IMG/VR virus record: IMGVR_UViG_3300032893_001611
Coordinates: 1 to 63,931 of that record
Length of the DNA: 63,931 nucleotides
DNA from: a virus
Strand: one strand, 5' to 3'
Positions 53-63,869 of the stretch are shown here, one piece after another; position 1 is the first letter of the stretch; each line of letters begins with the position of its first letter. Position numbers and translations under genes: made by a program. The notes beneath the pieces are model-generated. The model ran no database searches. It saw nothing but the letters and a program-made list of their open reading frames with translations, and was not told the DNA's origin.

Positions 53-128
53 GGCCAGGTAGCTCAGTTGGTAGAGCGCAGCCCTGAAAAGGCTGGCGTC
101 GGCGGTTCGATTCCGTCCCTGGCCACCA
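53..128 (+). tRNA. tRNA-Phe (GAA), integration target
   Basis: A full cloverleaf of 76 nt folds here: 7-bp acceptor stem GGCCAGG/CCTGGCC, D arm with AGTTGGTA loop, 5-bp anticodon stem CAGCC/GGCTG with loop CTGAAAA, 5-nt variable loop, T arm with TTCGATT loop, and encoded CCA. The anticodon GAA reads phenylalanine codons. Its 3' part is duplicated at the far end of the window, so the gene was used as an attachment site and remains intact after integration. Confidence 0.97.
79..127. repeat. attL core (49-bp direct repeat)
   Basis: This stretch, from the anticodon stem through the acceptor end of the tRNA, is identical to 63821-63869. Bases just outside (78 and 128 against 63820 and 63870) differ. 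A tRNA 3' end duplicated beside a tyrosine recombinase gene is the usual product of site-specific integration. Confidence 0.95.
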
Positions 129-22550: not shown

Positions 22551-22870
22551 CAGGCCATCGACGGATCGCGAATGGTCGACAGGAGCCCTATGACCGCTCC
22601 GGGCAGTTTCCCGTCGCCCCAATCATCGCCGCCGCCGTCCCGGTCGCGATAGAGCACGCCGGTCAGGTAAAGAACAGATTTCTTGACCAGCGCCGGAATG
22701 TTCTCCGCGATGATCTCGCCGGCGGAATCGAAATACGCGTCCGGGTGATCGAGATAGTTCAGGACCGCTTCACTCGCCGCCTCGATCTTCAGCTCGACGT
22801 CGCCCTGGTCGTCGTCGCTGTCGAGCCGCAGATGATCGCGGGCCTCTTCGTAGGTCACAAGCGAAATCAT
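22550..22870 (-). CDS. Head-tail connector (gp6-like)
   Basis: The 106-aa protein begins with YEEARDHLRLDSDDDQGDVELKIEAASEAVLNYL, the usual start of phage gp6-like connectors, which form a ring under the portal. It shares one base with the collagen-like gene upstream and with the sugar gene downstream, so the whole block is tightly packed. Confidence 0.9.
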   Translation of the reverse strand: MISLVTYEEARDHLRLDSDDDQGDVELKIEAASEAVLNYLDHPDAYFDSAGEIIAENIPALVKKSVLYLTGVLYRDRDGGGDDWGDGKLPGAVIGLLSTIRDPSMA

Positions 22871-39337: not shown

Positions 39338-39390
39338 GAATTTCCGTATCGGGCGCATCCGCGCAGTCGCCCCTGACCTTTTTTGCCGTC

Positions 39391-39437
39391 TCCCTCGTCG
39401 CCGAGGGGATGGCTTCGTGACCCCTCGGCTAGAGGGA
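39391..39437 (+). promoter_or_regulatory. Hairpin leader, copy 1 (before ParB-like gene)
   Basis: TCCCTC-GTC-GCCGAGGGG, a 12-nt loop, then CCCCTCGGC-TA-GAGGGA. The stem of 9 + 6 bp with a small bulge ends 30 bp before the ATG at 39467. The same element, with sequence changes that keep pairing, lies at 41628-41672. Confidence 0.7.
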
Positions 39438-39466
39438 AACTTCAACCCCAAAAAAGGAGCATATCT

Positions 39467-41146
39467 ATGACTGACATCACGCAAATACCGATTAGCAAGC
39501 TCGTGGCCTGGGACGGCAACGTGCGCAAGACCGCAGGCGCTGACACCGCGCTCGCGGAACTGGCCGCGTCCATCGCAGCACACGGGCTGATCAACAACCT
39601 GGTCGTCAATCCAGAGAAGAAAGGCGCCTACGCCGTCGTCACCGGCGGCCGCAGGCTTGCCGCGCTCCAGTTGTTGGTCAAGCAAGGCAAGAAGAAGGCC
39701 GACGACACGGTGGCCTGCCAGATCCTTCCCGCCGAAGCGAACGCGACGGAAATCAGCCTCGCCGAAAACTTCGTGCGCGAGGAAATGCACCCCGCCGACG
39801 AGTTCGACGCCTTCAAGATGCTGGCCGACCAGAACATGCCGGCGGCCGACATCGCGGCGCGTTTCGGCGTCACCGAGAAGGTCGTGCTTGAGCGCCTGAA
39901 GCTCGCGCGCGTCAGCCCGGTCATCATCAAGGCGTACCGTGACGGCAAGACGACGCTCGACTGCGTCATGGCCTTCGCGGTTACCGACGACCACAAGCGG
40001 CAGGAGCGCTTCTGGAAATCATGCCCCGAATGGGCGCGCACCAACCGCCGCCAGATCCGCGACTCGCTTACCGAAGGCGAGATTGACGCAACCGACCGCA
40101 TGGTCCGGTTCGTCACGCTACAAGCCTACGAAAAGGCCGGTGGCACCGTTCGCCGCGACCTCTTCACCGATGGCGACCAGGGCGTGTTCATCACCAAGCC
40201 CGACCTGCTCAACGAACTGGCCGCCGCGAAGCTGCAGACGAAGATCGACGCAGCGCTCAAGGACGGCTGGAAATGGGCCGACGTGCTCGCGCCGAACGAT
40301 CATGAAACCACCTACAAGCTGAAATCGATTCAGCCTGCGGGCAAGAAGGATACGTTCAAGCCCGAGCAGAAAGCCAATGCCGGCATCTTCGTACGCATCC
40401 TTCCCGGCGGCGAGCTGGACGTGCTGGAAGGATACGTGAAGCCGGGCGATGCCAAGGCCGCCAAATCGGCCGATCCGAGGGCTAAGGACAAAGCCAAGGC
40501 GAAACCCGCCGAGCAAGCCGGTCTGTCGCAATCTTTGACCGACGACCTTATCGGCCAACGCACAGCGGCAATCGCAGCCGAACTTACCGGCCAGCCGCTG
40601 CTCGCGCTGCGGGCAGTGGTTCACAGCCTCGGGATGAAAGCCGTTTACGGCACCTTCAACTCCGACGACAGGCCGGTCGACGTGAACTTCAAGCACACGG
40701 ACCATCCTATCGGGTTCGCCGAGCGATGCAAGCCGAAGGCTGTCGTCGAGCTGGAGGAACAGCGCAAGGCGTGGAAGAAGAAACTTCCCGCCGAGAGCAA
40801 ATTCTGGCAATGGTGCCTCGACGCCGACCAGAAGCAGCTGCTCTCTCTGCTGGCCTTCTGCGCCGCTCAGTCCTGCACGAACGGCGAGTTGCTGATCGAA
40901 CCGCTCGGCCTCGACATGGCCAAGTGGTTCATGCCGACGGTCGACAACTACTTCGGCCGCATCGGCAAGCCGCAGATCGTCGCCGACTTGAAGGAGATAG
41001 GCAAGGGCAACTTGCTCTCGCCGGAGAAAACCGGCAAAGCCGATGCCGCGTCCTTCGCCGAGCGCACGGCCAAGGGCTCCGGATGGTTGCCGAAGCTGCT
41101 GCGTACGGCCAAACCCGGCAAAAAGCCGCAGAAGAAAGCGGCCTGA
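39467..41146 (+). CDS. ParB/Srx-domain protein
   Basis: The start at 39467 has AAAAGGAG upstream. The 559-aa protein opens with a ParB nuclease/CTPase-like domain (about residues 5-100: ISKLVAWDGNVRKT, LAASIAAHGLINNLVV, VTGGRRLAALQLL, EISLAENFVREEMHPADEF), then a helix-turn-helix (ADIAARFGVTEKVVLERLKLARV). The long C-terminal part is not recognised. ParB-like proteins of this size are common on alphaproteobacterial plasmids and integrated elements. Its ParA-like partner lies 20 kb away. Confidence 0.88.
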   Translation: MTDITQIPISKLVAWDGNVRKTAGADTALAELAASIAAHGLINNLVVNPEKKGAYAVVTGGRRLAALQLLVKQGKKKADDTVACQILPAEANATEISLAENFVREEMHPADEFDAFKMLADQNMPAADIAARFGVTEKVVLERLKLARVSPVIIKAYRDGKTTLDCVMAFAVTDDHKRQERFWKSCPEWARTNRRQIRDSLTEGEIDATDRMVRFVTLQAYEKAGGTVRRDLFTDGDQGVFITKPDLLNELAAAKLQTKIDAALKDGWKWADVLAPNDHETTYKLKSIQPAGKKDTFKPEQKANAGIFVRILPGGELDVLEGYVKPGDAKAAKSADPRAKDKAKAKPAEQAGLSQSLTDDLIGQRTAAIAAELTGQPLLALRAVVHSLGMKAVYGTFNSDDRPVDVNFKHTDHPIGFAERCKPKAVVELEEQRKAWKKKLPAESKFWQWCLDADQKQLLSLLAFCAAQSCTNGELLIEPLGLDMAKWFMPTVDNYFGRIGKPQIVADLKEIGKGNLLSPEKTGKADAASFAERTAKGSGWLPKLLRTAKPGKKPQKKAA

Positions 41147-44777: not shown

Positions 44778-46693
44778 TGTTCAGCAGACTTAAGCGCAGC
44801 ATCGGGTGGAACTTTCCTACGAACGACGACGGCCAGGAGAGCGGCCCGAACGATCCGGGCCTCGAAACCTTCAAGGGCCATCCGCTGACGAACCTCGCGC
44901 GGGAGGTTCTCCAGAATTCGTCCGACGCGTCGCCGGTCGGATCGACCAAGCCGGTGCAGGTCAACTTCGAGCTGCGCACGATCCCGACGTCTGAATTCCC
45001 CGGTCTGGCGGAATTCAAGAAGATACTGCAGGCGTGCGGCACCTATTGGGAGAAGTCGAAGCCCGGCGAGAAGATGGTCAAGACCGCGATGGCGGTCCTC
45101 TCGAAAAGCGAGATGCCCGTCCTCAAGATCTCCGACTTCAACACCACCGGCCTGACGGTCGGCGGAAAGGGCGACCATTCATCGGACTTCTACAAGCTGA
45201 CCAAATCGGTCGGCTCCTCCGACAAGGCCACCGGAAAAGCGGGATCGTTCGGCATCGGCAAGCACGCCACCTACGTCTGCTCCGACCTGCGCACGGTCTT
45301 CTACGGCACGCTCGATATCGACGGCGCGACCGCCGTGCAGGGCGTGGCGAAGCTGGCGACGCACCGCAAGGAGCGCAACGTCACCACGCAGGGAACCGGC
45401 TATTTCGGGATCAAGAACGGCAACAAGCCGATCCTCGATCCCGGCGACATGCCGCAGTTCTTCGAGCGCAAGAAGATCGGCGCCGACGTCTACGTCATGG
45501 GCTTCCGCGACTATCCCGATTGGGAGGCGCGCATCGTCAAATCGGTGATCGAGAGCTTTTTCCTCGCCATCCATACCGGCAAGCTGATCGTAAAGGTCGG
45601 CAAGACAACCGTCAACGACACCGCACTGCCAAAGCTGATCGCCAAATACTATGCCGAGCCGGAAAAGGAATTCCTTGCCGACGAATACTACAGAGCCCTG
45701 ACCAGCGAGGGCGTCGTCGTCCACACCGAAGCCGATTTCCTGGGGCTCGGGCCGGTCAAGCTGACCCTGCTCGAAGACAAGATTTTCAACAAGCGCGTCG
45801 CCATGTTCCGCCGCAGCGGCATGAAGATCTTCGACAAGCGCTTCGTCACACCCTCCCGGTTCGCCGCCGTCTTCACGGCGGACGGCCCGAAATTCGACGC
45901 GCTGATGCGCACGCTGGAGCCGCCGACGCACGACGCGTGGCAGCCCGACCGCGCCGACGATCCGACGGCGGCCAACAAGGTCCTGAACGAGCTTTATGGC
46001 TGGATACGCGACAAGGTGCGCCAACTCGCCGGCACGGAAGACCTGCAGGAGATGGATGCCGAGGGCATCAGCCAATACCTGCCCGACGACGTGGAAGACG
46101 CCGAAAAGGGCCAGCCGGTCATCGTCGAGGAACTGAACGACGAGCCCGCGCCGGTTCTCGACATGCGCATCCGCTCGACGCCCAAGCAGACGATCCCGAC
46201 CTACGACGCGGCCGCCGTGTCCGATGAGGAACAGGGCGACACGGAGGGCGCCGCCGAGGGAGCAACCGGCGGCGGCGGTGGAGATGGCGGAGGCGGCGGC
46301 GATGGGGGCGGTGGTGAAGGCGGCAGCACCAACGGCACCGGCACGAGCGGCGGAGGCACTTCGCACACAGGCCCCGATCACAACAAGCGCGTCGATCTCA
46401 CGAACCTGCGGATATATTGTTCCGATCCGTCGCAGGGCCGGTACCGTCTCCTGTTCGAGCCGAAAAACGAGGACGCCGCCCACCTGCGGGTTTTCGTCAT
46501 CGGCGAAGTCGGCGTCGAGCCCGCGCAGCTGGTCAGCTATGCCGTCAACGGCGGCCCGGACATCCCTGTCAACGGCCATTCCAAAGGCATGATCGGCCCC
46601 CTGACCCTGAAGAAGGGACAGCGCGCCTCGCTCGACGTTGTCCTGCAGGACAATCTTCGCTGCGCCCTCGGAGTAAACGCATATGCAGATTAA
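44777..46693 (+). CDS. GHKL ATPase (MORC/MutL-like) of the cassette
   Basis: The ATG at 44777 overlaps the methyltransferase stop (TAATG). The 638-aa protein has the GHKL motifs: N box AREVLQNSSDAS (Glu43, Asn47, Asp50), G1-like ISDFNTTGL, G2 GSFGIGKHA near residue 155. A glycine-rich linker (about 500-540) leads to a beta-rich C-terminal domain. GHKL ATPases clamp on DNA. MORC-like members occur in operons with methylases and Vsr- or REase-type nucleases, where they are thought to drive restriction. Confidence 0.85.
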   Translation: MFSRLKRSIGWNFPTNDDGQESGPNDPGLETFKGHPLTNLAREVLQNSSDASPVGSTKPVQVNFELRTIPTSEFPGLAEFKKILQACGTYWEKSKPGEKMVKTAMAVLSKSEMPVLKISDFNTTGLTVGGKGDHSSDFYKLTKSVGSSDKATGKAGSFGIGKHATYVCSDLRTVFYGTLDIDGATAVQGVAKLATHRKERNVTTQGTGYFGIKNGNKPILDPGDMPQFFERKKIGADVYVMGFRDYPDWEARIVKSVIESFFLAIHTGKLIVKVGKTTVNDTALPKLIAKYYAEPEKEFLADEYYRALTSEGVVVHTEADFLGLGPVKLTLLEDKIFNKRVAMFRRSGMKIFDKRFVTPSRFAAVFTADGPKFDALMRTLEPPTHDAWQPDRADDPTAANKVLNELYGWIRDKVRQLAGTEDLQEMDAEGISQYLPDDVEDAEKGQPVIVEELNDEPAPVLDMRIRSTPKQTIPTYDAAAVSDEEQGDTEGAAEGATGGGGGDGGGGGDGGGGEGGSTNGTGTSGGGTSHTGPDHNKRVDLTNLRIYCSDPSQGRYRLLFEPKNEDAAHLRVFVIGEVGVEPAQLVSYAVNGGPDIPVNGHSKGMIGPLTLKKGQRASLDVVLQDNLRCALGVNAYAD

Positions 46694-47552
46694 GCCACGT
46701 TCCTATCCGCACCCGGTGCTGGCGCACTTCGGCGACGATATCGTCAATTCGGCCTTCATGCCGGTGGTCACGGTCAAGGCGAACAAGAACGCCTATTCCT
46801 TCGACGCCATTTTCAAGACCAACAATACCGACCTGCTCAAGCTCATCGCGCAGAAAGAGGCCCGCTACGCCGTCCACGTCGAATGCCCGCAGACGCGCTA
46901 CCGCAACATCTTTAAATCGGAATCCGACAAGATGTCCTTCGAGATCCCGGCCGGGATGCTCGACGGCAACGTCGAGGTGACGTCGTTCATCCTGGCGTCC
47001 AAGCCGATCGACAAATACCGCAATGACCTGTTTCACCCCGATTACGCGAAGTTGACGTTCCGCGTCCGCAAGGCGGATACGCTCGCCGTCGGCCTCGATC
47101 ACGAATTCACGGCCGAGAAGAAAGTCGATCCGCTGCGCAAGGTGCCTTCCATCTTCTCGATCCAGCCCAACGACGAGCCTGAAGCCACCGGAATGGATAT
47201 CGACAGCGCCGGCAACAAGGTGACGGTCCGTCTTTCCCGACCGAACTACGATGCCTACGCGCTGCTGCGCAACGACGCGAAGCTGCACCCCATGCTTTCG
47301 CTCGCCGTGATCGTTCCGGCGCTTGTGGCCGTCATCGACGAGATGCGGCGCGAAGCCGCCGCCGGCAGCATCGGCGAATACAAGGACCGCCGTTGGTTTC
47401 TGGTTGTCTCGCGCCGCCTGCGCGAGATCGGCATCGACCCGGAAGACGCGGATGCGTACAACGAATCCAGCCTGCGCATCGCGCATGAAATGCTGGGCCA
47501 GCCCCTCGGCGAATCGCTCGCGGGCCTGAAAGACATGCAGGACACGGAGTGA
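46683..47552 (+). CDS. Unknown cassette protein (289 aa)
   Basis: No domain is recognised. The protein overlaps the GHKL gene by 11 bp. Its first half is beta-rich (VNSAFMPVVTVKANKNAYSF, FEIPAGMLDGNVEVTSFI), and the second half is helical (LHPMLSLAVIVPALVAVIDEM). The helical part is typical of a core that binds partners. It is probably an obligate partner of the GHKL ATPase. Confidence 0.75.
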   Translation: MQIKPRSYPHPVLAHFGDDIVNSAFMPVVTVKANKNAYSFDAIFKTNNTDLLKLIAQKEARYAVHVECPQTRYRNIFKSESDKMSFEIPAGMLDGNVEVTSFILASKPIDKYRNDLFHPDYAKLTFRVRKADTLAVGLDHEFTAEKKVDPLRKVPSIFSIQPNDEPEATGMDIDSAGNKVTVRLSRPNYDAYALLRNDAKLHPMLSLAVIVPALVAVIDEMRREAAAGSIGEYKDRRWFLVVSRRLREIGIDPEDADAYNESSLRIAHEMLGQPLGESLAGLKDMQDTE

Positions 47553-47556
47553 TTTC

Positions 47557-48306
47557 ATGAACAAGCTCACCTTTCTTCGCGCCAACAGCCTGGAACGCCT
47601 GCAGTCGAACATCATCGCGAACCAGCATCGCTATTCCGAAGCCGCGCCATGGCTGACTTCCTATTTCTCCGGCTCGTCGTGGCTTCAGGAATCGAACCTG
47701 ATCCAGTACGAGCCCTTCCAGCTCGTGATGCCGGCCAGCAAGACCGATCACCGCGATCTTGAAAACACGCGGATCGTCTACACCGCGCTGCGTCACCTGA
47801 CACCCCTGCAGGCCGCCGATCCGCGCCTGTGGGCCTACATGACGCACGTCACGCATTGGGAATATATGCGCCAGCGGTGGCCGATCGAGCAGTACCTGGG
47901 CCGCAAGGATCTCCGGGACAATATCCAGGACCACTATTTCCTGAAGCCGCCGAAATCGCGGGCGCTGATCCACAACGGGCTCGCGCGCCTGTGGTGGTAC
48001 GGATACTGCAGCTTCGACGAAAGCCGGCAGGACCCTTTCGAACTGACGACCGCGCTCCTGAAGAACCTCGACGTCGCGCAGACCCTGCTCGAACGGGCTT
48101 TTTCGCTGAACACCACGGTCACGCGGACGATGCTCTCGATCCTGCTGGAGCGCGAGAAGCAGGGCAAGGCATTCTACGTGCGTGAGCGCGTGCGCGATCT
48201 TGCGAAATACATCGTGCAGATCGGCGGCGTCACCATCATCGACGCGCTCGATGAGCCGGATCTGCGCGACCTGGTCAACGGCAAGATCGAGCAGCTGGCG
48301 GCCTGA
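47557..48306 (+). CDS. DUF6339-like cassette protein (249 aa)
   Basis: The all-helical protein has features that I associate with DUF6339: LRHLTPLQAADPRLWAYMTH, RQRWPIEQYL, and ALIHNGLARLWWYGY with a RLWW core. The family is often next to GHKL ATPases and Vsr nucleases. Enzymatic function is unknown. It follows the 289-aa gene by 4 bp. Confidence 0.7.
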   Translation: MNKLTFLRANSLERLQSNIIANQHRYSEAAPWLTSYFSGSSWLQESNLIQYEPFQLVMPASKTDHRDLENTRIVYTALRHLTPLQAADPRLWAYMTHVTHWEYMRQRWPIEQYLGRKDLRDNIQDHYFLKPPKSRALIHNGLARLWWYGYCSFDESRQDPFELTTALLKNLDVAQTLLERAFSLNTTVTRTMLSILLEREKQGKAFYVRERVRDLAKYIVQIGGVTIIDALDEPDLRDLVNGKIEQLAA

Positions 48307-48310
48307 AGTC

Positions 48311-48727
48311 ATGCCCGATAACCTCACGCCCGAGCAGCGCTCCTTCAGCATGTCGCGCATACGCTCGCGCGGCAACAGCTCGACCGAGCTGCGGCTGATC
48401 GAGCTGATGCGGGGCGCGGGCATCAAGGGATGGCGCCGCAAAAGCAAGCTTTGCGGGCGCCCGGATTTCGTTTTTCCCCGCTTTCACATAGCCGTCTTCG
48501 TCGACGGCTGCTATTGGCACGGCTGCCGCAAATGCTCGCTAGGCTCGAAAAGCAACGTCGAATACTGGAAACCAAAGATCGCCGGTAATATCAAGCGCGA
48601 CCGGTCCAACAGCAGGGCGCTGCGCGGTGACGGCTGGCGCGTTGTCAGGATCTGGGAACACGACCTCAAGGCCTCGCCGATGAAGTGCCTGGCGAAGATC
48701 ATGTCTGCCATGCGGCCGCAGGAATGA
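48311..48727 (+). CDS. vsr: Vsr-like endonuclease
   Basis: The 138-aa protein matches very-short-patch repair nucleases: SFSMSRIRSRGNSSTELRL, GRPDFVFPRFHIAVFVDGCYWHGC, and WKPKIAGNIKRDR. The catalytic Asp (in PDF) and zinc-binding Cys/His are kept. Classical Vsr nicks T:G mismatches at Dcm sites. In a cassette with a GHKL ATPase it may be the effector that cuts unmodified DNA. Confidence 0.92.
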   Translation: MPDNLTPEQRSFSMSRIRSRGNSSTELRLIELMRGAGIKGWRRKSKLCGRPDFVFPRFHIAVFVDGCYWHGCRKCSLGSKSNVEYWKPKIAGNIKRDRSNSRALRGDGWRVVRIWEHDLKASPMKCLAKIMSAMRPQE

Positions 48728-49603: not shown

Positions 49604-49863
49604 CGCGCATTATCGCCAATTTCGGTCTCTGCACGGCATTCCCCGTCCGTCATGTCCGTTCCCCGCGCAGGGTTTCCCGCGAACCTCATGCCTCGATCGT
49701 GACCGTGAGCGTCGGCCTGTCAACGGCGCTGCCCGCTCCATTCCTCGCTGCGCTCGTCCCGTGTTGGCCGTTACCCTGTGGTGACAGCCCGACTATCTGC
49801 GCCCGTTCTCTCTGGTCTCGGCGGTTCGGGAAAAACCCGGCCGCAAAGGAGAACAGACAATGA
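49600..49863 (+). CDS. Doubtful frame or long leader (87 aa)
   Basis: An ATG overlapping the upstream stop opens a frame to 49863, which overlaps the next ATG. Only the first 13 residues (MTRIIANFGLCTA) look protein-like; the remainder is Pro/Arg/Ser-rich like translated leader DNA. It may be a leader peptide or not a gene. Hairpin arms lie at CGGTTCGGG and CCCGGCCG near 49819-49842. Confidence 0.3.
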   Translation: MTRIIANFGLCTAFPVRHVRSPRRVSREPHASIVTVSVGLSTALPAPFLAALVPCWPLPCGDSPTICARSLWSRRFGKNPAAKENRQ

Positions 49864-50531
49864 GAACCGAACGGCAGAACGCTTTCATCAACACCGTCAT
49901 CAACGGCGATTGCATCGAGGTTATGCGCCGCCTTCCGTGGGCGAGCGTCGATTTCATCCTCACCGACCCGCCCTATCTCGTGAACTACCGCGACCGCACG
50001 GGCCGCACCGTGGCGAACGACGCCGGCGACGGGGCATGGCTGAAGCCGGCGTTCCGGGAGATGCACCGGGTCCTGCGGCCCGACAGCCTGGCCGTCAGCT
50101 TCTACGGCTGGAACAAGGCCGACCTGTTCTTCGACGCGTGGAAGTCTGCCGGGTTCTCGATCGTCGGCCACATCGTGTTCCGCAAGCGCTACGCCTCGAC
50201 CGCGCGGTTTTTGAGCTACCGTCACGAGAGCGCCTACCTACTGGCGAAGGGCCGTCCGCAACTGCCCGCGCAGCCGGTGCCCGACGTGCTCGATTGGGAC
50301 TACACCGGCAACGCGCTGCATCCGACGCAGAAGCCGGTCGGCTCGCTGAAGCCGCTGATCGCCGCGTTCACGAAGCCGGGAGCGGTCGTGCTGGACCCGT
50401 TCTGCGGTTCGGGATCTTCGCTCGTGGCGGCGCGCGATCTCGGCCGGCGCTACATCGGCATCGAGCTGGACGCGAAGCACCACGCCACCGCGACCGCGCG
50501 GCTGGCTAGCCCGCAGGCCGAGGCCGCGTAA
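49860..50531 (+). CDS. DNA adenine N6-methyltransferase (DPPY, beta class)
   Basis: The 223-aa protein opens NGDCIEVMRRL, has motif IV LTDPPYLVNY near residue 38, TGNALHPTQKPVGSL and motif I VLDPFCGSGSSLVAARDLGRRYIGIEL in the C-terminal part, the order of beta-class enzymes such as CcrM or HinfI methylase. AAAGGAGAA precedes the ATG. Solitary methylases of this type are common in the mobilization regions of alphaproteobacterial elements and may protect incoming DNA. Confidence 0.92.
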   Translation: MRTERQNAFINTVINGDCIEVMRRLPWASVDFILTDPPYLVNYRDRTGRTVANDAGDGAWLKPAFREMHRVLRPDSLAVSFYGWNKADLFFDAWKSAGFSIVGHIVFRKRYASTARFLSYRHESAYLLAKGRPQLPAQPVPDVLDWDYTGNALHPTQKPVGSLKPLIAAFTKPGAVVLDPFCGSGSSLVAARDLGRRYIGIELDAKHHATATARLASPQAEAA

Positions 50532-51408: not shown

Positions 51409-51539
51409 CCCCGGTCCAACCAAAGAAAGAGGCTCGGCGGGGGAGAGCCTGTGGCCCCGCCAGTCAGAACCTTTCGGCATTCCGCGTGCATCGAAAGAGA
51501 TGGATGCGACGTAAACCCGGCATTAACGGGTCGAGCCGT

Positions 51540-51557
51540 AGGATCATCTATGATCCT
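51540..51557. promoter_or_regulatory. Palindrome at the relaxase start
   Basis: AGGATCAT-CT-ATGATCCT is a perfect 8-bp inverted repeat that contains the relaxase start codon. A related palindrome AGGATCA-A-TGATCCT lies at 54689-54703. It may be an operator for relaxase autoregulation. Confidence 0.55.
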
Positions 51558-53205
51558 GAAGGGAAATCAGCGTGGTGGCGGCCAGAAATTAGCCGCTCAC
51601 CTGATGAACGCGTTCGACAACGAGCGCGTTGAAGTCGCTGAAGTCCGCGGCGCCGTCGCGCAGGATCTCTCCGGCGCATTCGCCGAATGGAACGCATACA
51701 CCCACGGCACCAAGGCCAAGGAAGCTCTTTATAGTTTTTCCGCCAGCCCCGATCCCGCCCAGCGCCAACTGACCCGCGAGGAATACTACGATATCCTCGC
51801 CCGCACTGAGCGCAGCCTCAACCTTGTCGGGCAGCCGCGCGCCGTCGTCTTCCACGTCAAGGAAGGCCGTGAGCATGTCCATGCCGTCTGGTCGCGCATC
51901 GATACCGAGAAGATGAAGGCCATCCAACTATCGGATGATCGCCTGAAGCTGCGCACGGTCGCACGGGATTTCGCCCGTGACCACGGCCTGGAACTGCCCG
52001 ACGGCTTGAAGAAGGATCGTAAAAAAGACCGTTTCGACGATCGCCTTAAGCAGGAGAACCTCGCCGAGCGCCAGCAGAAGGAGCGCAATGGCATCCCGAA
52101 GGCGCAGCGCATGGCCGACATCGCCACCTGCTGGCGGGAAACCGGCAACGGCGCGGCCTTCGTGCAGGCCCTTGAGTCAAAGGGCTATTTCATCGCCAGG
52201 GGCGATCAGCGGGCCTTCGTCGTCATCGACCTGCACGGCGAGGTTCACAGCCTTTCCCGCCAGCTCGCCGGCGTGGCGAAGTCGAAGGAGCTGTCGGGGC
52301 GGCTGGCATCGCTTCCACTCGACAAGCTGAACGACATCGCCGGAGCGCAGGACATGGCCCGCCGCGCCGTCGAGCAGGCGCGGGAGAAAGACCGCGCGCA
52401 GGAACACCAGCAGCAGGAAAAGGAGAAGGAGCACGACCGCGAGGAACAGATCAAGGAACGCCGCGCCCGGATCTTCAAATGGTGGCTGGCCCGTCAGCAG
52501 GAGCTGGAGCAGGCGACGTTTAAAGCCCTCTCCGAACACCTTAGCGAACGGACAGCGCTGAGGGAAATGCACGACGCCGAGAACACCGGCATCGTCAGCG
52601 CGCGCCTCGCGCGGCAGCCCAAGGGATTGCTGGGCTTCCTGCGGCGGATCACCGGGATCGAGCTGATGGCCGACCGCCGCGCGCAACGGCAGGACGCCGA
52701 GCGCGACGCGCAGCAGAAGCAGCAGATGAAATCCCTGCAGGACAAGCACGACCGCGAACTCGCGGAGCTGGACCGCCGGAAAAAATGGCTCAAATCGCTT
52801 GAGGCGCGGGAGACACGTTCAATGGAAACCGCGCTGCACCGCGAGGAATTCCAGCAGGTCGCCCGCAAGATCGTCGAGATCGACCGCAAGCGCGTCCAGC
52901 CTGAATTCCAGCGTGCCGCCGCGCCGGCGGTCCTGCAGCGCACCGGCACCGACGATGCCAAGGCCCCGGAAAAGGGCAAACTCGTAAACCTGTTCACTCG
53001 TTTCCGCGATATGCTGAACCCGCCGGAACCGACCCCCGAGCAGCCGCGCGTCACGCCGAAGGAGGACTTCGAGCAGGCGGCCAAGCCGCCGGTCGACCTC
53101 ACCGCGGAATTCAACCGCGAGGTCGAATACCGCAAGCAACAGGAAGACCGCGACCGGGACATCGATCCCGGCCGCGACTTCGACCCGAGCGATCCCACCA
53201 ATTAG
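51550..53205 (+). CDS. Relaxase (MOBP/VirD2-type)
   Basis: The 551-aa protein starts at 51550 (MILKGNQRGGGQKLAAHL). The N-terminal relaxase domain has the pattern NERVEVAEVRG, EWNAYTHGTKAKEALYSFS, and HVKEGREHVHAVWSRID with a metal-binding His cluster around residues 102-111. The rest is a long Glu/Arg/Lys-rich coiled coil (about 260-480) and acidic tail. A relaxase nicks oriT and pilots the strand into a secretion channel. The nicking Tyr cannot be assigned with certainty. Confidence 0.9.
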   Translation: MILKGNQRGGGQKLAAHLMNAFDNERVEVAEVRGAVAQDLSGAFAEWNAYTHGTKAKEALYSFSASPDPAQRQLTREEYYDILARTERSLNLVGQPRAVVFHVKEGREHVHAVWSRIDTEKMKAIQLSDDRLKLRTVARDFARDHGLELPDGLKKDRKKDRFDDRLKQENLAERQQKERNGIPKAQRMADIATCWRETGNGAAFVQALESKGYFIARGDQRAFVVIDLHGEVHSLSRQLAGVAKSKELSGRLASLPLDKLNDIAGAQDMARRAVEQAREKDRAQEHQQQEKEKEHDREEQIKERRARIFKWWLARQQELEQATFKALSEHLSERTALREMHDAENTGIVSARLARQPKGLLGFLRRITGIELMADRRAQRQDAERDAQQKQQMKSLQDKHDRELAELDRRKKWLKSLEARETRSMETALHREEFQQVARKIVEIDRKRVQPEFQRAAAPAVLQRTGTDDAKAPEKGKLVNLFTRFRDMLNPPEPTPEQPRVTPKEDFEQAAKPPVDLTAEFNREVEYRKQQEDRDRDIDPGRDFDPSDPTN

Positions 53206-55436: not shown

Positions 55437-55615
55437 CCCCCGCTGAGTTCAAGGAAGCACGCAAGCGCCTCTGCCTTTCCCAAGCGGAAATGGCCGAGTT
55501 TTTGCGCTTGTCGGATGCGCGCGTCATCCGCTTCTACGAAGCGGGCGCGCGGGAGATCAGCGGCCCTATACAGGTCGCCATCGCCTACCGCTTGAAATAC
55601 GGCCCGCTGCTCTAG
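55433..55615 (+). CDS. XRE-family helix-turn-helix protein (60 aa)
   Basis: The protein is a single helix-turn-helix unit (FKEARKRLCLSQAEMAEFLRLSDARVIRFYEAG). It may repress the neighbouring mobilization genes. It is convergent with the coupling protein gene and overlaps it by 4 bp at the 3' ends. Confidence 0.8.
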   Translation: MTPAEFKEARKRLCLSQAEMAEFLRLSDARVIRFYEAGAREISGPIQVAIAYRLKYGPLL

Positions 55616-58600
55616 GCAAAATCCCTCTCGTCAGGCTTCGGGATATCCTCTTCCTCGAACATCGTGACGTCGACCTTCGGCCCCTTGGTCGACAGCCGGT
55701 CCGCCTGACGGGCGACGCATTCCTCGAAGATGTTGCGCACCGTGCGCCCGTTGCCGAATCCCTTCTTGCCGGTCTCCAGAGATTCGAGCAGCTGGCTGGC
55801 CGCCGTCACCGCATCGAGCGAAAAGCGGATGCCGGCCGCCGACGCCATATGCCCCAGGATCTGCAGCAGCTCGGCCGCGTCGTAATCCTCGAAGTCGATG
55901 AAGGTCTTGAAGCGCGACTTGAGGCCGGGATTGCTGTCGATGAAGCGCCCCATCTCGTCCTTGTAGCCGGCGACGATCACGACCAGCCGGTCGCGGTAAT
56001 CCTCCATCGCCTTGAGCAGCGTCGCCACCGCTTCCGGCCCGAAGTCGTTCGTCGTGCCCTGCGCCAGCGTGTAGGCTTCGTCGATGAACAGCACGCCGTC
56101 GAGCGCCCGCGACAGCACTTCCTTCGTCTTCGTCGCCGTCTGGCCGACATAGTCGGCAACGAGATCGCCACGGTCGCACTCGACCATGTGGCCGGATTTC
56201 AGGAGGCCCATTTCCTTGTAGACCTTGCCGACGATCCGCGCCACGGTCGTCTTGCCCGTGCCGGGATTGCCGGTGAAGACCAGATGGTGCGTGAGTTCGA
56301 GCTTGGGCATGCCCTTGCGCTCGCGCTCCTTGCCCAGCTGCACGAGGTTGACGGTCTTGCGCACCTGCTTCTTGACCTCGGCCAGCCCGATCAGGGCGTC
56401 GAGTTCCGCCAGCACGGCCTTCTGCCTCACCTTGTCCGAAGTCGTTTTGCCGTCCGCCACGGGCAGCGGCTTTTCCGTTCGCGGCGGGAGTGCCAGTCCG
56501 GGATTGAGGGGCGGATTGCTCGTGACTTTCTCCGGTACCGGCGTGTAGTCGTAGCCGGGGTTCGGCTTCGGCGTTTCCGTCCGTTGTTCCGATCGGCCGA
56601 GATACTTGTGCAGCGCCTCGTCCCACGTCATGTTCGTGCCCGGCACGGTTTCCGACAGGTGAATGACGTCGTCTTTCTCGGCCTGCGGCGTCGACGCCGG
56701 CGCGTAGATTTCGTCGTCAGGCCTCGGCGTAAATACCTTCTCGATTTCACCCGGCGGCTTCGGCGGCCGGGGCGCAATGTCGCCCGGCGGTTTGGGCGGG
56801 ATCTTCGGCGGTTTTATATCGTCGTCCTCCCTTCCCCAGCGCCAGATCCAGCGATTAGGCTTCTCGCGGAACCTCCGGTCGCGGGAATAATACCACCATG
56901 GCATGTATTCGAAGTACGGGCAGACCTTGAGCAGCAGCGGGCGTTTCGAGCCGCGCCAGACGATCTGGTTCTTGCTTTCCTTGGAGAGCATCCGCGCCAC
57001 CTGGTCCGGATCGCGCAACGCCCGTTCCGAGACAAGTTCGCGGAGTTTTCCGTCGCCCATGTCCTGCTGTGACGTGATCACATGCTCGCCCAACCGTTCG
57101 GCCAGCCACGCGACCGTCGGCGGATGCGTGATGCCCATGACCTGCACGGCCTCGGCATTGCCGATGAAGCCGCCCCACGAATCGGGATAGACCCGCTCGA
57201 ACTGCTCAAGATCCTGGCCGATCACCCACAGGCGCACGCCCTGCGAGCGCATGGTGGGCGCGACGGTCTCGATGCCGTCGAGCTTGCCGAGGCTGGGGAA
57301 TTCGTCGATGGCCAGAAGAATGGGCGGTTTCGGAGCCTTGTTGACACGCGTCATCATGTCGACGGTCAGCAGGACGAACATGCGCAGCCAGCGCCCCTCG
57401 ATGCCGGAAACGGCATTGAGCGGCAGGCACAGATAGACCGAGATCACGTCGTTCTTGAGGTCCTCTAACAGGAAGTCGGACGACGTGCTGATGCGCCGGA
57501 TCTCCGGCATGTCGAGGAACGAGGTATGCTCCATCGCCATGGTCAGGACGGAGCCCCGTTGGTTGTGCGACATCTTCGAGAGCGAATTCGCAGCGCCGAC
57601 GATGACATGGCGGTAAGGCCCCTCGGGCGAGTTCTTCATCAGGGTCAGCAGCGCGTCGAAGGCGTCACCCGTGGACTTGCCGCGGATGACGAAGCCGGGC
57701 CGTTCGTCGGTTTCACCCTCCATGATCAGCGAGCGCAGCTTGCACAGATTGCGGTTTTCCTTCGGTCCCTGGAAGACGTAGAGGATGAGCCCGGCGATGA
57801 AGGTCCGGGGCGCGTCGTCCCAATAGGGATCGCGGCTGGTGGAGGGAACCAGAGCCTGCGCAATCTTGCGGGCATAGCTGACCGGCCGGTCGGCATCGTA
57901 CTGGGCGACGCGCTCCATTTCGTCGAAGACGTTGTAGCAGGCGCTCTGAAAACCCTTCACCGTATGAAACGGATCGAGAACGAAAACCTTCTGTCCCATG
58001 CCACGGACACCGCCCCCGCCGTTGCCGCGACGACGTGCGGTAATGGCCGCCAGCTCGCCCTTGGGATCGATGCAGAGCAGAGATCCCCGATGAATGCAAA
58101 GGTTCGGGATCAGCGCCCCTGTTGACTTGCCAGCGCCCGTGCCGGCGATGGTGACCATGTGACGTTCGGTAGGAACGCCGATGGGCCTGAGCATGCCGCC
58201 GATCGGCAGCTTGGGGCGGCCGAGGAAGATATCGCCGTCCTTGAATTCGCAGGAAAGGGTTTCCCACAAAGAGGCAAAACGCCCGGTTGCATGCTGCCCG
58301 AAATGACGCTCGCGCTCCCACCAGTTGCTGATGCCGACCATCATCTTCAGGAAGTGAGGACGATGCCGGAATGTTTTCCAGCCGAACGGATTCCACCGCC
58401 CGATCAGCTTCCAGAAACGCGCCCCGAAGAACGTCCAGAAGAAATACGAAATCAGGATGGCGACAAGCCAGCTGAGGGCCTCTCCGGTGATCCGGAAGAA
58501 GCCTGCACCGTGATAGACCTCGCGCCAGGTCAGATGGAAAAAACCGTCCCAGACGCGGAGCATAAGCCACCGGCCGGGAGCCGTGAAAATCCCGATGAAG

Positions 58601-58725
58601 GCGAGGAAGACGGGGTCGGTGTAATGCGATACCGCCCGGACATGGGGCTCAAGCGAAGGCGGAGGACCGATGACCAGCACCCAAGCGCCAAGGACGACGA
58701 GCGCAAGTATGAGCCAGCCTCTCAT
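55612..58725 (-). CDS. VirD4/TraG coupling ATPase fused to CbbX-like AAA+
   Basis: This 1037-aa protein has membrane helices (about residues 3-20, 36-57 and 83-105), then the TraG/VirD4 motor: Walker A GTGAGKST (about 195-202), CIDPKGELAA, and Walker B LLAIDEFPSLGK (about 465-480). A proline-rich linker (about 640-765) leads to a second ATPase (766-1037) of the CbbX/SpoVK class: Walker A GNPGTGKTT (about 819-827), VGQTATKTKEV, and Walker B LFIDEAYTL. Coupling proteins pass relaxase-DNA to the channel. This fusion is very unusual. Confidence 0.92.
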   Translation of the reverse strand: MRGWLILALVVLGAWVLVIGPPPSLEPHVRAVSHYTDPVFLAFIGIFTAPGRWLMLRVWDGFFHLTWREVYHGAGFFRITGEALSWLVAILISYFFWTFFGARFWKLIGRWNPFGWKTFRHRPHFLKMMVGISNWWERERHFGQHATGRFASLWETLSCEFKDGDIFLGRPKLPIGGMLRPIGVPTERHMVTIAGTGAGKSTGALIPNLCIHRGSLLCIDPKGELAAITARRRGNGGGGVRGMGQKVFVLDPFHTVKGFQSACYNVFDEMERVAQYDADRPVSYARKIAQALVPSTSRDPYWDDAPRTFIAGLILYVFQGPKENRNLCKLRSLIMEGETDERPGFVIRGKSTGDAFDALLTLMKNSPEGPYRHVIVGAANSLSKMSHNQRGSVLTMAMEHTSFLDMPEIRRISTSSDFLLEDLKNDVISVYLCLPLNAVSGIEGRWLRMFVLLTVDMMTRVNKAPKPPILLAIDEFPSLGKLDGIETVAPTMRSQGVRLWVIGQDLEQFERVYPDSWGGFIGNAEAVQVMGITHPPTVAWLAERLGEHVITSQQDMGDGKLRELVSERALRDPDQVARMLSKESKNQIVWRGSKRPLLLKVCPYFEYMPWWYYSRDRRFREKPNRWIWRWGREDDDIKPPKIPPKPPGDIAPRPPKPPGEIEKVFTPRPDDEIYAPASTPQAEKDDVIHLSETVPGTNMTWDEALHKYLGRSEQRTETPKPNPGYDYTPVPEKVTSNPPLNPGLALPPRTEKPLPVADGKTTSDKVRQKAVLAELDALIGLAEVKKQVRKTVNLVQLGKERERKGMPKLELTHHLVFTGNPGTGKTTVARIVGKVYKEMGLLKSGHMVECDRGDLVADYVGQTATKTKEVLSRALDGVLFIDEAYTLAQGTTNDFGPEAVATLLKAMEDYRDRLVVIVAGYKDEMGRFIDSNPGLKSRFKTFIDFEDYDAAELLQILGHMASAAGIRFSLDAVTAASQLLESLETGKKGFGNGRTVRNIFEECVARQADRLSTKGPKVDVTMFEEEDIPKPDERDFA

Positions 58726-58934
58726 AAACGATTAAGGCCATTCTTTCACGGATCGCCCTTTTCCGTTGCCGTGAAGTCTGTCATGCTTACGCTACGCCGG
58801 GTCCCCGGCGAAATTCAGCGCCTGTATTGCATTTGAGCTAAATTTTATCTACCATGCTGATAACTTCAGCCCACGCAATTAAATTACGCGGCCTGCGGCC
58901 GAAGGCAGCAGAAAAAGGCCGTCGCGTACCGCTC

Positions 58935-59013
58935 GCAAGATGTGCGCGTGTTCCACGCGCTACCGCTCGCCTGACGGCTCACTCATCTTGCAAAGGGGGT
59001 AGCTTCGCCCCCC
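58935..59013. other. Candidate origin of transfer (oriT)
   Basis: The gap between the coupling protein and MobC genes has oriT features: inverted repeat GCAAGATG/CATCTTGC (58935-58942 and 58984-58991), a 7-bp hairpin GCGCGTG-TTC-CACGCGC (58944-58960), CATCTTG-C that fits the MOBP nic consensus YATCYTG-Y (58984-58991), and GGGGG/CCCCC (58995 and 59008). Position beside mobC is typical. The nick site is not proven. Confidence 0.6.
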
Positions 59014-59025
59014 GTTTGATCCCCC

Positions 59026-59152
59026 GGACCATGGGCTTCGCCCGCTGGACCCGACCAGGAGAGCCTTCGTGCCCTCCATGGACCTCCAGACCGGGCGAGA
59101 CTTCGCTCTCTCCCTGGACCCTCATCGACCATGGGCCTTGCCCCGTGGACCC
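59026..59152. repeat. Direct repeats 100 bp apart near oriT
   Basis: Two 27-bp imperfect copies begin at 59026 and 59126; both contain GACCATGGGC and end GTGGACCC or CTGGACCC. They are exactly 100 bp apart. They may be MobC binding sites or part of a transcription leader. Confidence 0.6.
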
Positions 59153-59245
59153 GCGCCGGATGCGTTCCGCCCCTGCACCCCTGACCAACCCTCGGCGGAT
59201 TGGATGCCCCGCCTGCGGCGCGCTAATGCGCCCGGAGAACAAAAC

Positions 59246-59638
59246 GTGAGCAGCAGCGGCAGCCAGAAGCGCAAGGCGACGAAGCGCATCGCCGTCAACT
59301 GCACGCCCGAACAGTACGCGGAGATCGTCGCCAAGACAAGCGCCGCGGGGCTCTCGCCGAGCGCGGTCTGCCTCAACGTCCTGCTCGACACGCCCCTGCC
59401 CGCCCGTCGCCGCCCCGTGAAGGACGAAGCGCTGCTGGCGAAGGTGCTGGCCGAGCTGGGCAAGATCGGCTCCAACATCAACCAGATCGCCTACCGCTAC
59501 AACATCGCCGAGGTGCTGCCCGCCGGCAACATCGAAGGCGCCCTCGAAGCCGCCCTGCGCGAGCTGCTGGAATGGCGCACAGCCATCATGCAGTCGCTCG
59601 GCTACGAGCGCCCCCGCAAGCCCCCGAAAAAGGATTGA
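59246..59638 (+). CDS. mobC: MobC-like relaxosome protein
   Basis: The GTG start at 59246 has GGAGAA 9 nt upstream. The 130-aa protein has a basic ribbon-helix-helix start (KRIAVNCTPEQYAEIVAKTSAAGLSPSAVCL) and the MobC signature LGKIGSNINQIAYRYN near residue 80. MobC proteins bind oriT and help the relaxase. A longer frame from 59069 covers the repeat region and is unlikely to be used. Confidence 0.88.
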   Translation: MSSSGSQKRKATKRIAVNCTPEQYAEIVAKTSAAGLSPSAVCLNVLLDTPLPARRRPVKDEALLAKVLAELGKIGSNINQIAYRYNIAEVLPAGNIEGALEAALRELLEWRTAIMQSLGYERPRKPPKKD

Positions 59639-60862: not shown

Positions 60863-61543
60863 ATGAAGGTGATTTCCGTCCTGATGCAGAAAGGCGGCAG
60901 CGGCAAGACCACGCTTGTTGAAAGCCTCGCCGTCGCCGCGATGGCCGACGAGGCCGTCGCCATCGTCGACCTCGACCCGCAATCGACCGCCTGCAAGTGG
61001 GGCGACCGGCGCAACGCCGAGCCCGCGATCATGTCCGTCCAGCCCGCGCGCCTGCCGCAGACGCTGAAGGTTCTGCGCGAGAAGGGGGCGAGCCTTGTCC
61101 TGATCGACACGCCCCCGCGGGCGGCCGACGCGGCGATGGCGGCGGCGCAGGCGGCCGACCTGATCCTGATCCCGTCGCGCCCCACGATCAATGACCTCGA
61201 AACAATCGCCACCACACGCGACCTGATCAGCGGGGCAGGGGCTTCCGCCAAAATCGCCGTTGTTCTTAACGGCATTCCGCCGCAGGGCCGGCAGCGCGAG
61301 CAGGCCGAGAACGCCGTCCGCGAGATGGGGCTGTATATCTGCCCCGTCGCCTTCGGCCACCGCAGCGCCTTCACGCACGGCGCCGTGCTCGGGCAGACCG
61401 CGCAGGAGTTCGACCCGAGCGGCAAGGCCGCCGGGGAAATAAAACAGCTTTACAAGTTTACGAGCAAACTCCTAAACTCCCTCACACCCAAACAGGAAAA
61501 CACCGATGGCAAAGAAATCAGCAGATCTGGCGCAGGCGCTTAA
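60863..61543 (+). CDS. parA: ParA-family partition ATPase
   Basis: The 226-aa protein is a small ParA without DNA-binding N-terminal domain: Walker A MQKGGSGKTTL at residue 8, VDLDPQSTACKW, and ASLVLIDTPPRA. Such proteins work with short ribbon-helix-helix partners such as ParG, and the next gene fits that role. Presence of partition genes suggests that the element has, or had, a plasmid-like phase. Confidence 0.93.
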   Translation: MKVISVLMQKGGSGKTTLVESLAVAAMADEAVAIVDLDPQSTACKWGDRRNAEPAIMSVQPARLPQTLKVLREKGASLVLIDTPPRAADAAMAAAQAADLILIPSRPTINDLETIATTRDLISGAGASAKIAVVLNGIPPQGRQREQAENAVREMGLYICPVAFGHRSAFTHGAVLGQTAQEFDPSGKAAGEIKQLYKFTSKLLNSLTPKQENTDGKEISRSGAGA

Positions 61544-62461: not shown

Positions 62462-63715
62462 ATGAAAGGGACGCCGTCCAATCCGCCAGCGCCGACAGCC
62501 ACGAATGGTGGTAATGTCGTGGTCGAGGCAAATCGCTGCGCGTCATCGAAGGGAGATTTCGATGCAATGGCGCGCAGAAGATTTCAGGACCCGCGGCCCA
62601 GGATAGAGGGTCATTTCTGGGTCCTGTATTACTGGCAGGATGAATTCGAAAACGGACAAAGGAGGCGGCGCAAAAAGAGAGAGAAACTTGCCCCCGCCAC
62701 CGTAAAGGAGCGGGAAGTCCGCAAAATCGCGGCTGAGTTTCTCCGCCCCGTCAATCAGGGCCTTGTGCCCCTCGGAGCGGCGACTAGCTTCGATGACTTC
62801 GTGGACAGCACGTATACTCCGGTCGTTTTACCGACGATGGCCAAGAGCACGCAGGATCGCTACAAAGGCGTGATCAGGAATTACCTCAAGCCCCAATTCG
62901 GCGGTTTGAGCCTGCGCGACATCACGCCCCTGACCACCGACCGGTATTTCTCGGAGCTGGGCAAGACGGGCCTGCAGTACGAATCAATCGACAAGGTCCG
63001 CGATGTCCTCGCCAGCGTTCTGACATCGGCGATCCGCTATGGGTTGCTGATCAAGAACCCGGCGGAAGGCGTGCGGCTCCCGCGCGCGAAGCGGGGCAAA
63101 AAAAGCAAACCGTGGATCACGCAGCAGCAGTTCAACACCCTCACCGGACTGATCGCGGAACCCTACGCCACCATGCTGTACGTGGCGGTCTACACGGGCC
63201 TGCGCGTCAGCGAGTTGATCGGCCTCCGGTGGAACGATGTGCATGAAGACTCGATCACGATCGACGAGCGGTGCTGCCGGGGTGACTGGGGCGCTCCCAA
63301 GAGCGAAGCCAGCAACGACACCATTCCGGTCAACCGCGCCGTGATCGAGCGCATTCTCCGGCTGAAGACCCTGACCGTCGACGTGAAGGCGGGCAGGGCG
63401 GTCAGGCATTACAAGGTCGTGAAGTCCGACGGCCCGAATGACCTGGTCTTTCAGTCCGTGTCGACGGGAGCCGCAATGCGGGACAACAACATCCTCAAGC
63501 GGCACATCAAGCCTGCAGCCCGCAAGCTCGGGCTTGATTTCGTCAACTGGAGATGCCTGCGGACGTCCTACGCCACATGGCTCAAGGAAGCCAAGGCGGA
63601 TATAAAGGATGCGCAGAAGCTCATGCGGCATTCGAGGGCGACAACGACACTGGAAATCTACCAGCAGTTCATTCCGGAGTCGCAGCGGAGAGTTGTGGAC
63701 GGCCTGATCAACTAG
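62462..63715 (+). CDS. int: Tyrosine recombinase (integrase)
   Basis: The 417-aa protein has an N-terminal arm-binding part (about residues 36-90), a SAM-like core-binding domain (about 105-195) and the catalytic domain: TGLRVSELIGL (Arg I), WRCLRTSYATWL (Arg II, with Arg or Trp where His II usually stands), LMRHSRATTTLEIYQQF (His III and Tyr). This variant box occurs in integrases of this kind. It ends 105 bp before attR. The true start may be at 62567 (MARRRFQDP). Confidence 0.94.
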   Translation: MKGTPSNPPAPTATNGGNVVVEANRCASSKGDFDAMARRRFQDPRPRIEGHFWVLYYWQDEFENGQRRRRKKREKLAPATVKEREVRKIAAEFLRPVNQGLVPLGAATSFDDFVDSTYTPVVLPTMAKSTQDRYKGVIRNYLKPQFGGLSLRDITPLTTDRYFSELGKTGLQYESIDKVRDVLASVLTSAIRYGLLIKNPAEGVRLPRAKRGKKSKPWITQQQFNTLTGLIAEPYATMLYVAVYTGLRVSELIGLRWNDVHEDSITIDERCCRGDWGAPKSEASNDTIPVNRAVIERILRLKTLTVDVKAGRAVRHYKVVKSDGPNDLVFQSVSTGAAMRDNNILKRHIKPAARKLGLDFVNWRCLRTSYATWLKEAKADIKDAQKLMRHSRATTTLEIYQQFIPESQRRVVDGLIN

Positions 63716-63820: not shown

Positions 63821-63869
63821 CAGCCCTGAAAAGGCTGGCGTCGGCGGTTCGATTCCGTCCCTGGCCACC
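63821..63869. repeat. attR core (49-bp direct repeat)
   Basis: Exact copy of 79-127, the tRNA-Phe 3' part, without the 5' half of the tRNA. It marks the right end of the element; chromosome resumes after it, and no gene is visible in the last 60 bases. Confidence 0.95.

What the first reader, a model, noticed from the sequence alone, without database searches (positions are those of the whole stretch)
55612..58725. VirD4/TraG coupling protein fused to a CbbX/SpoVK-like AAA+ ATPase
The first 640 residues are a normal membrane-anchored coupling protein. A proline-rich linker then joins a complete second ATPase with its own Walker A, Walker B and lid. The AAA+ class resembles CbbX and the EccA-type ATPase of type VII secretion, which remodel or release protein substrates. 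A coupling protein with a built-in unfoldase could unfold the relaxase or other cargo before transfer.
Basis: partly seen in the sequence, partly recalled or inferred. Interest (0 to 1): 0.8.

Follow-up and report, generated by a model that had tools for sequence, protein, structure and literature searches.

The report
Conjugation coupling protein with built-in unfoldase-like ring
A bacterial mobile element encodes a DNA-export gate protein fused to a second ATP-driven motor of a class that remodels proteins; this rare but real fusion suggests a candidate for the still unidentified enzyme that unfolds proteins before they pass through the conjugation channel.

Summary
Window 55612-58725 (-) is one open 1037-aa frame: an N-terminal membrane segment, a VirD4/TraG-type coupling protein (T4CP, residues ~141-610), a disordered proline-rich linker (~626-763) and a complete CbbX/SpoVK/EccA-class AAA+ ATPase (~768-1030) with every catalytic motif intact. 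It is not an artefact. Two other intact T4CP-AAA fusions exist (Afipia massiliensis, 962 aa; an unnamed Hyphomicrobiales genome, 1176 aa), and Bradyrhizobium barranii carries a broken one. The same AAA class is encoded separately beside T4CPs, for example 10-12 bp downstream of the T4CP gene in two Mesorhizobium conjugative plasmids. All three intact fusions lie near relaxase and NikA/MobC-like genes. I found no paper describing the fusion, and published work says the enzyme that unfolds type IV secretion substrates is unknown. Best reading: a coupling protein of a mobilizable element that carries its own substrate- or relaxosome-remodelling ring. This is inferred, not shown. Unexpectedly, the window is one integrated element, bounded by a 49-bp repeat of the tRNA-Phe 3' end, that combines siphophage genes with the mobilization module; neither the phage's cousins nor the Afipia element has both.

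The parts
55612..58725 (-). T4CP-AAA fusion gene, 1037 aa
   Evidence: single open frame; Pfam/NCBIfam domains
58396..58725 (-). N-terminal membrane segment (residues 1-110)
   Evidence: hydropathy 2.27 at residues 1-19; helices 2-19 and 81-100 in the model, low confidence
56896..58305 (-). VirD4/TraG coupling-protein motor domain (residues 141-610; Walker A around K200, Walker B D474-E475)
   Evidence: PF02534 E 2.8e-45; fold matches TrwB and Cagbeta
56437..56850 (-). proline-rich disordered linker (residues 626-763; 20% Pro)
   Evidence: composition; pLDDT about 30-45 over most of it
55636..56424 (-). CbbX/SpoVK/EccA-class AAA+ domain with lid (residues 768-1030; Walker A GNPGTGKT, pore loop LVADYVGQT, Walker B VLFIDEAY, arginine finger NPGLKSRF, sensor 2 FGNGRTVR)
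   Evidence: Pfam AAA and AAA_lid_6; motif table; fold match to CbbX, TM-score 0.73-0.77
59069..59638 (+). NikA/MobC-like relaxosome accessory gene, divergent from the fusion gene
   Evidence: Pfam NikA-like E 4.5e-13 over residues 68-141; the true start may lie downstream
58880..59010 (.). candidate oriT region (GCAAGATG/CATCTTGC inverted repeat and GCGCGTG/CACGCGC hairpin) between the divergent genes
   Evidence: inverted repeats; position only, not tested; motif not found in the 142 loci held at that point other than the window's own copy
51451..53205 (+). MobA/VirD2-like relaxase, 584 aa
   Evidence: Pfam Relaxase E 1e-13; 38-50% identical homologues in mobile elements; conserved histidines H135, H142, H144
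60863..61543 (+). ParA/VirC1-like ATPase
   Evidence: Pfam AAA_31 E 1e-12, VirC1 E 5e-5
39383..41146 (+). ParB-like protein, homologue in the Afipia element
   Evidence: Pfam ParB_N; PHROG ParB-like; 27% identity
62462..63715 (+). tyrosine integrase of the element
   Evidence: Pfam Phage_integrase E 8e-15
79..127 (+). left att repeat, 3' part of tRNA-Phe (53-128)
   Evidence: ARAGORN; 49-bp perfect repeat
63821..63869 (+). right att repeat, just past the integrase
   Evidence: 49-bp perfect repeat; no third copy at up to 12 mismatches

Best explanation
The protein is the coupling protein of a mobilizable integrated element. Shown: it has a VirD4/TraG-type motor and, on a flexible linker, a complete CbbX/SpoVK/EccA-class AAA+ domain; homologous fusions exist elsewhere; the same AAA class occurs as a separate gene next to coupling proteins in conjugation loci. 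Inferred: the coupling protein forms a hexamer at the inner membrane, recruits the relaxase-DNA complex of its own element and docks on a T4SS supplied by another element, since no VirB4/VirB11 gene was recognised in the window. The tethered AAA+ domains form a second hexameric ring on the cytoplasmic side. That ring grips a terminal or exposed segment of the relaxase, or of a relaxosome accessory protein such as NikA, and pulls it through its pore using ATP. This unfolds or strips the substrate and hands it to the coupling-protein channel.
For: Two complete ATPase domains. AAA catalytic and pore residues all present. Two further intact fusions, in Afipia (36% over 142-1029) and G167, both divergent from MobC + relaxase genes. 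Unfused version: AAA gene 10-12 bp downstream of the T4CP gene in two Mesorhizobium conjugative plasmids. Back-to-back T4CP/AAA genes in Marinibacterium and marine MAG contigs; nearby in Halioglobus and G699. AAA genes of this class are uncommon (28 of 385 class-level genomes), yet at least 6 of 148 T4CP loci carry one within 10 kb. T4CP C-termini are known docking sites for relaxosome proteins and chaperones (F TraD-TraM, DotL-IcmSW; PMC7434980, PMC12857230). Relaxases must be unfolded for transfer and the unfoldase is unknown (PMC5826034).
Against: No functional data. Most related T4CPs lack the AAA domain, so it is not needed for transfer in general; two of the closest T4CPs (Microvirga L044, Anammoxibacter L063) have none within 10 kb. 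The G167 fusion has an altered pore loop (LAGETWGSG), so substrate threading may not be conserved. The class remodels very different targets (Rubisco, EccA clients), so the relaxase is only one possible target. The T4CP-linked AAA domains may not be one lineage (AU p = 0.04 for 11 of them).
Confidence: 0.5

Rival explanations
1. The AAA ring acts on the secretion machine rather than on the cargo: it displaces the helper element's own coupling protein or rearranges T4SS components so that this mobilizable element can take over the channel.
For: The element encodes its own T4CP, but no VirB-type channel gene was recognised in the window; the three intact fusions all sit near their own relaxase genes.
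Against: Mesorhizobium plasmids typed as conjugative with MPF_T carry the same AAA class in the T4CP operon, where no hijacking is needed.
Confidence: 0.2
2. The AAA domain is mainly a regulator or oligomerisation scaffold: it drives or gates hexamer assembly of the coupling protein and does not thread a substrate.
For: T4CPs carry varied terminal appendages (N-terminal coiled coils in G198/G039, long C-terminal tails in Acidobacteria); the G167 pore loop is altered.
Against: Complete Walker A/B, arginine finger and sensor residues in all three intact fusions argue for an ATP-driven cycle; the AAA also exists as a separate adjacent gene, which a simple scaffold would not explain as well.
Confidence: 0.2
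3. Neutral domain accretion: two neighbouring genes fused by loss of a stop codon and the AAA domain does nothing specific for transfer.
For: The fusion is rare (Afipia and G167 among 397 order-level genomes sampled; none intact in 72,556 plasmid records) and absent from most related T4CPs.
Against: Both domains and their motifs are kept at 36% overall identity between window and Afipia proteins, so the fusion has been maintained over long divergence; repeated unfused linkage.
Confidence: 0.08
4. Assembly or sequencing artefact joining two genes.
For: The window is a virus record from metagenomic data.
Against: Intact homologous fusions in an isolate genome (Afipia massiliensis DSM 17498) and a second genome; no composition break.
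Confidence: 0.02

Closest known systems
VirD4/TraG-type type IV coupling proteins (TrwB of R388, Cagbeta of H. pylori, TraG family)
   Same: T4SS-DNA_transf motor, N-terminal membrane segment, near relaxase and NikA-like genes; fold matches TrwB and Cagbeta
   Different: about 430 additional residues: a proline-rich linker and a complete second ATPase
CbbX (red-type Rubisco activase) / SpoVK
   Same: AAA core plus AAA_lid_6; 42-44% aligned identity to CbbX structures; same Walker, pore-loop, arginine-finger and sensor-2 motifs
   Different: fused to a T4CP; below the CbbX and SpoVK equivalog cut-offs; outside the CbbX clade; no Rubisco gene recognised in the window
EccA of type VII secretion
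   Same: same AAA class, linked to a secretion or conjugation machine; in mycobacterial element Adler F1725 an EccA-like gene lies two genes before a VirD4-like gene with a relaxase nearby
   Different: no EccA N-terminal domain: the T4CP takes that place; outside the EccA clade; below the EccA cut-off
DotL (Dot/Icm T4CP) with C-terminal adaptor-binding tail; F TraD C-terminal TraM-binding tail
   Same: a C-terminal extension of a coupling protein that handles substrates (PMC7434980, PMC12857230)
   Different: those tails are docking segments; here the extension is itself an ATPase
traD-T4CP-AAA operon of Mesorhizobium plasmids pWSM4875 and MesoLjLa3
   Same: T4CP and same-class AAA encoded together
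   Different: two separate proteins; conjugative plasmids typed MPF_T

Membership tests
VirD4/TraG type IV coupling protein | T4SS-DNA_transf/TraG-D_C motor domain above the Pfam cut-off | tested here: met
   155.5 bits against cut-off 20.1; TraG-D_C 64.2 against 22
VirD4/TraG type IV coupling protein | N-terminal transmembrane segment(s) | tested here: inconclusive
   one strong hydrophobic segment at residues 1-25; further helices only at low model confidence
VirD4/TraG type IV coupling protein | encoded with a relaxase and relaxosome protein | tested here: met
   relaxase 51451-53205, NikA-like 59069-59638
VirD4/TraG type IV coupling protein | couples relaxosome to a T4SS and hydrolyses ATP | not testable with these tools
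   needs transfer and enzyme assays
CbbX/SpoVK/EccA-class AAA+ | AAA core plus AAA_lid_6 with Walker A/B, arginine finger and sensor 2 | tested here: met
CbbX (Rubisco activase) | NCBIfam equivalog score; placement with CbbX | tested here: not met
   232.6 against cut-off 459.25; outside the CbbX clade
EccA | NCBIfam equivalog score; EccA N-terminal domain | tested here: not met
   233.7 against cut-off 466.65, match only to the C-terminal half (273-530 of 557)
SpoVK | NCBIfam equivalog score | tested here: not met
   278.4 against cut-off 422.95
AAA+ unfoldase | aromatic pore-loop residue and complete catalytic set | tested here: met
   LVADYVGQT in the window; kept in Afipia, altered in G167
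AAA+ unfoldase | ATP-dependent unfolding of a substrate | not testable with these tools
   needs biochemistry
Integrative mobilizable element | integrase with flanking att repeats | tested here: met
   integrase 62462-63715; 49-bp repeats 79-127 and 63821-63869
Integrative mobilizable element | relaxase present, no mating-pair formation genes | tested here: inconclusive
   relaxase found; no VirB4/VirB11 hit among the larger ORFs scanned, but not every ORF was scanned
Integrative mobilizable element | functional oriT | not tested
   only a candidate hairpin region at 58880-59010
Temperate phage | terminase, portal, capsid and tail genes | tested here: met
   TerL, portal, capsid/protease, tape measure, gpJ-like tip, major tail

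The most novel reading that the evidence does not exclude
The AAA ring is a dedicated, ATP-driven unfoldase for the conjugation substrate, carried by the coupling protein itself; the adjacent-gene versions in other plasmids do the same in trans. That would identify, in at least one branch of conjugation systems, the missing enzyme that unfolds the relaxase before transfer. In this window it would also serve an element that can in principle move both as a phage and by mobilization.
Probability: 0.3. Interest if true: 0.87.

Novelty: new variant of a known kind. Interest (0 to 1): 0.62.

Why it matters
Relaxases must be unfolded to pass through a type IV secretion channel, and the literature states that the enzyme responsible is unknown (PMC5826034; also posed as open in PMC7434980). 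A coupling protein that physically carries a second, unfoldase-class ATPase, with natural fused, operon and split versions, offers a direct genetic and biochemical handle on that question: each ATPase can be switched off separately.

Tried and rejected
Artefact (missed stop or frameshift): rejected because intact homologous fusions exist in two other genomes. CbbX, SpoVK or EccA proper: rejected on NCBIfam cut-offs and, for CbbX and EccA, on trees. Anti-phage reading of the fusion: PADLOC gives only weak hits to IetA, TRIP13 and mad8, as expected for shared ATPase folds. Two elements in tandem at one tRNA: no third att copy even at 12 of 49 mismatches, so one unit is preferred, though a deletion of a middle att cannot be excluded. 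Long T4CP frames in G198/G039 looked like more fusions but carry N-terminal coiled coils. Acidobacteria T4CPs with long C-termini (L048, L064) carry no AAA. The 1034-aa frame reported for G033 was not confirmed: the AAA domain there is in a 342-aa frame. Single-protein scans of viral contigs for the fusion and the relaxase found no relative. Sharing of an oriT motif with other loci was not found. Literature searches for T4CP with SpoVK or CbbX gave no paper.

Full report
Observation. The reported ORF is real: 55612-58725 on the minus strand, ATG, 1037 aa without internal stop. Pfam assigns a type IV secretion coupling-protein motor to residues 188-606 (E 2.8e-45, with TraG-D_C 468-579) and an AAA+ core plus lid to 816-1028. 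NCBIfam puts the C-terminal part in the SpoVK/EccA/CbbX class at E 4e-83 to 5e-69, below each equivalog cut-off. AlphaFold with a 30-row alignment gives two confident domains joined by a disordered stretch (pLDDT below 50 for most of 626-761). Foldseek matches the C-terminal part to CbbX (TM-score on target 0.73-0.77) and the N-terminal part to Cagbeta and TrwB. The linker has 20% proline and normal coding composition.

Not an artefact. A genome scan with an alignment of related coupling proteins returned Afipia massiliensis DSM 17498 as top hit: one 962-aa frame matching query residues 142-1029 at 36% identity, including the linker position. A second intact fusion of 1176 aa lies in a Hyphomicrobiales genome (G167; AAA part 52%, T4CP part 31%). 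Bradyrhizobium barranii plasmid pCC829_1 has a truncated T4CP C-terminus followed by the AAA ORF in another, overlapping frame, which looks like a decayed relative. In the searched sets the fusion is rare: two of 397 order-level genomes, counting Afipia, a search centre, and no intact fusion among 72,556 plasmid records.

Association with conjugation. Around the Afipia fusion lie a divergent MobC and MobA/VirD2-type relaxase, and homologues of the window's relaxase (40%), NikA-like protein (32%), ParB (27%) and DNA methyltransferase (61%), inside an element bounded by a 46-bp repeat of the tRNA-Met end. G167 has the same divergent pair plus the window-type relaxase. The same AAA class is also encoded separately next to coupling proteins: 10-12 bp downstream of the T4CP gene in Mesorhizobium pWSM4875 and MesoLjLa3, back to back in Marinibacterium pLA6_010 and related marine MAG contigs, and within 3 kb in Halioglobus and G699. 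At least 6 of 148 T4CP loci of the genome scan have an AAA gene within 10 kb, while only 28 of 385 class-level genomes have such a gene at all (E <= 1e-35). Assuming about 3.5 Mb per genome, roughly 0.07 would be expected by chance. Caveat: the query alignment included two T4CPs already chosen for their AAA neighbours, and three of the six loci are near relatives. Mycobacterial element Adler F1725 shows an EccA-like gene two genes before a VirD4-like gene and a relaxase nearby, in a T7SS context.

Evolution. The AAA tree places the fused domains outside both the CbbX and the EccA clades. One clade of the three fusions plus the broken Bradyrhizobium copy is not rejected (AU p = 0.68), whereas one clade of the 11 T4CP-linked AAA domains tested is marginally rejected (p = 0.04). 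In the T4CP tree the fused proteins group together with two AAA-less T4CPs (L044, L063), with support 93 for including the window, which sits on a long branch. A simple reading is one fusion in one T4CP lineage, with loss or absence in some members, and more than one recruitment of this AAA class to coupling proteins. Support is modest.

Mechanism. AAA motifs for nucleotide binding, hydrolysis, arginine finger and sensor 2 are complete in all three intact fusions. The pore loop LVxxYVGQT is kept in the window and as LVGKYIGHT in Afipia, but replaced by LAGETWGSG in G167. C-terminal tails of coupling proteins are established docking sites for relaxosome and chaperone proteins (PMC7434980, PMC12857230). 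[quoted passage not shown] From these I infer a tethered AAA ring that remodels the relaxase or relaxosome and feeds it to the channel (confidence 0.5). Hijacking of the helper machine and a regulatory or scaffold role are the main rivals. No step of the mechanism is shown experimentally.

Setting. The window is a virus record. An intact tRNA-Phe lies at 53-128; its 3' 49 bp recur perfectly at 63821-63869 just past a tyrosine integrase, with no third copy. Between them lie terminase, portal, capsid, tail, tape-measure and tail-tip genes and the mobilization module. Five Hyphomicrobiales loci with the nearest terminases (about 51%) have no relaxase, T4CP or strong AAA homologue in the 80 kb read. 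The Afipia element has no homologue of the window's phage structural genes in the 57 kb compared. The window is therefore best read as a phage/mobilizable-element hybrid; metagenomic misassembly is not supported by composition or by the matching att ends, but read-level proof is lacking.

Verdict. Confirmed observation, partly supported interpretation. It is a new variant of a known kind: a coupling protein with a second, unfoldase-class ATPase.

Noticed in passing
window 79-127 and 63821-63869: Perfect 49-bp repeat of the tRNA-Phe 3' end bounds the whole window; one att-delimited element holds both siphophage structural genes and a relaxase/T4CP module. Phage cousins (5 loci) lack the module and the Afipia element lacks the phage genes.
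   Followed up: partly
window 44747-48306: Complete PADLOC candidate defence system PDC-M33 A/B/C (E 2e-185, 2e-87, 1e-79) in the element, followed by a Vsr-like endonuclease (48182-48727) and a DNA methyltransferase (49860-50531).
   Followed up: partly
L136 and L142 (Mesorhizobium pWSM4875, MesoLjLa3): traD - T4CP - AAA operon: the AAA gene starts 10-12 bp after the T4CP gene in plasmids typed as conjugative with MPF_T.
   Followed up: yes
L198 5969-9322, L199 5650-9000, L197: T4CPs with about 600-residue N-terminal extensions rich in charged coiled coil and repeated 'FPxVDxSxFP' motifs, next to relaxase genes in L198 and L199.
   Followed up: no
L064 9914-12946, L048 9938-12313: Acidobacteria T4CPs with Ser/Thr-rich insert and long C-terminal region with a membrane segment, paired with the relaxases closest to the window's (47-50%).
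   Followed up: no
L200 4273-7809 and Streptomyces megaplasmid hits: The same AAA class annotated within, or fused to, right-handed beta-helix repeat proteins (two AAA copies in L200), another recurrent architecture.
   Followed up: no
window 58880-59010: Candidate oriT with inverted repeats GCAAGATG/CATCTTGC and a GCGCGTG hairpin between the divergent T4CP and NikA-like genes.
   Followed up: partly
window 22870-23934: Collagen-like repeat protein next to the portal gene (Pfam Collagen E 6.8e-33).
   Followed up: no
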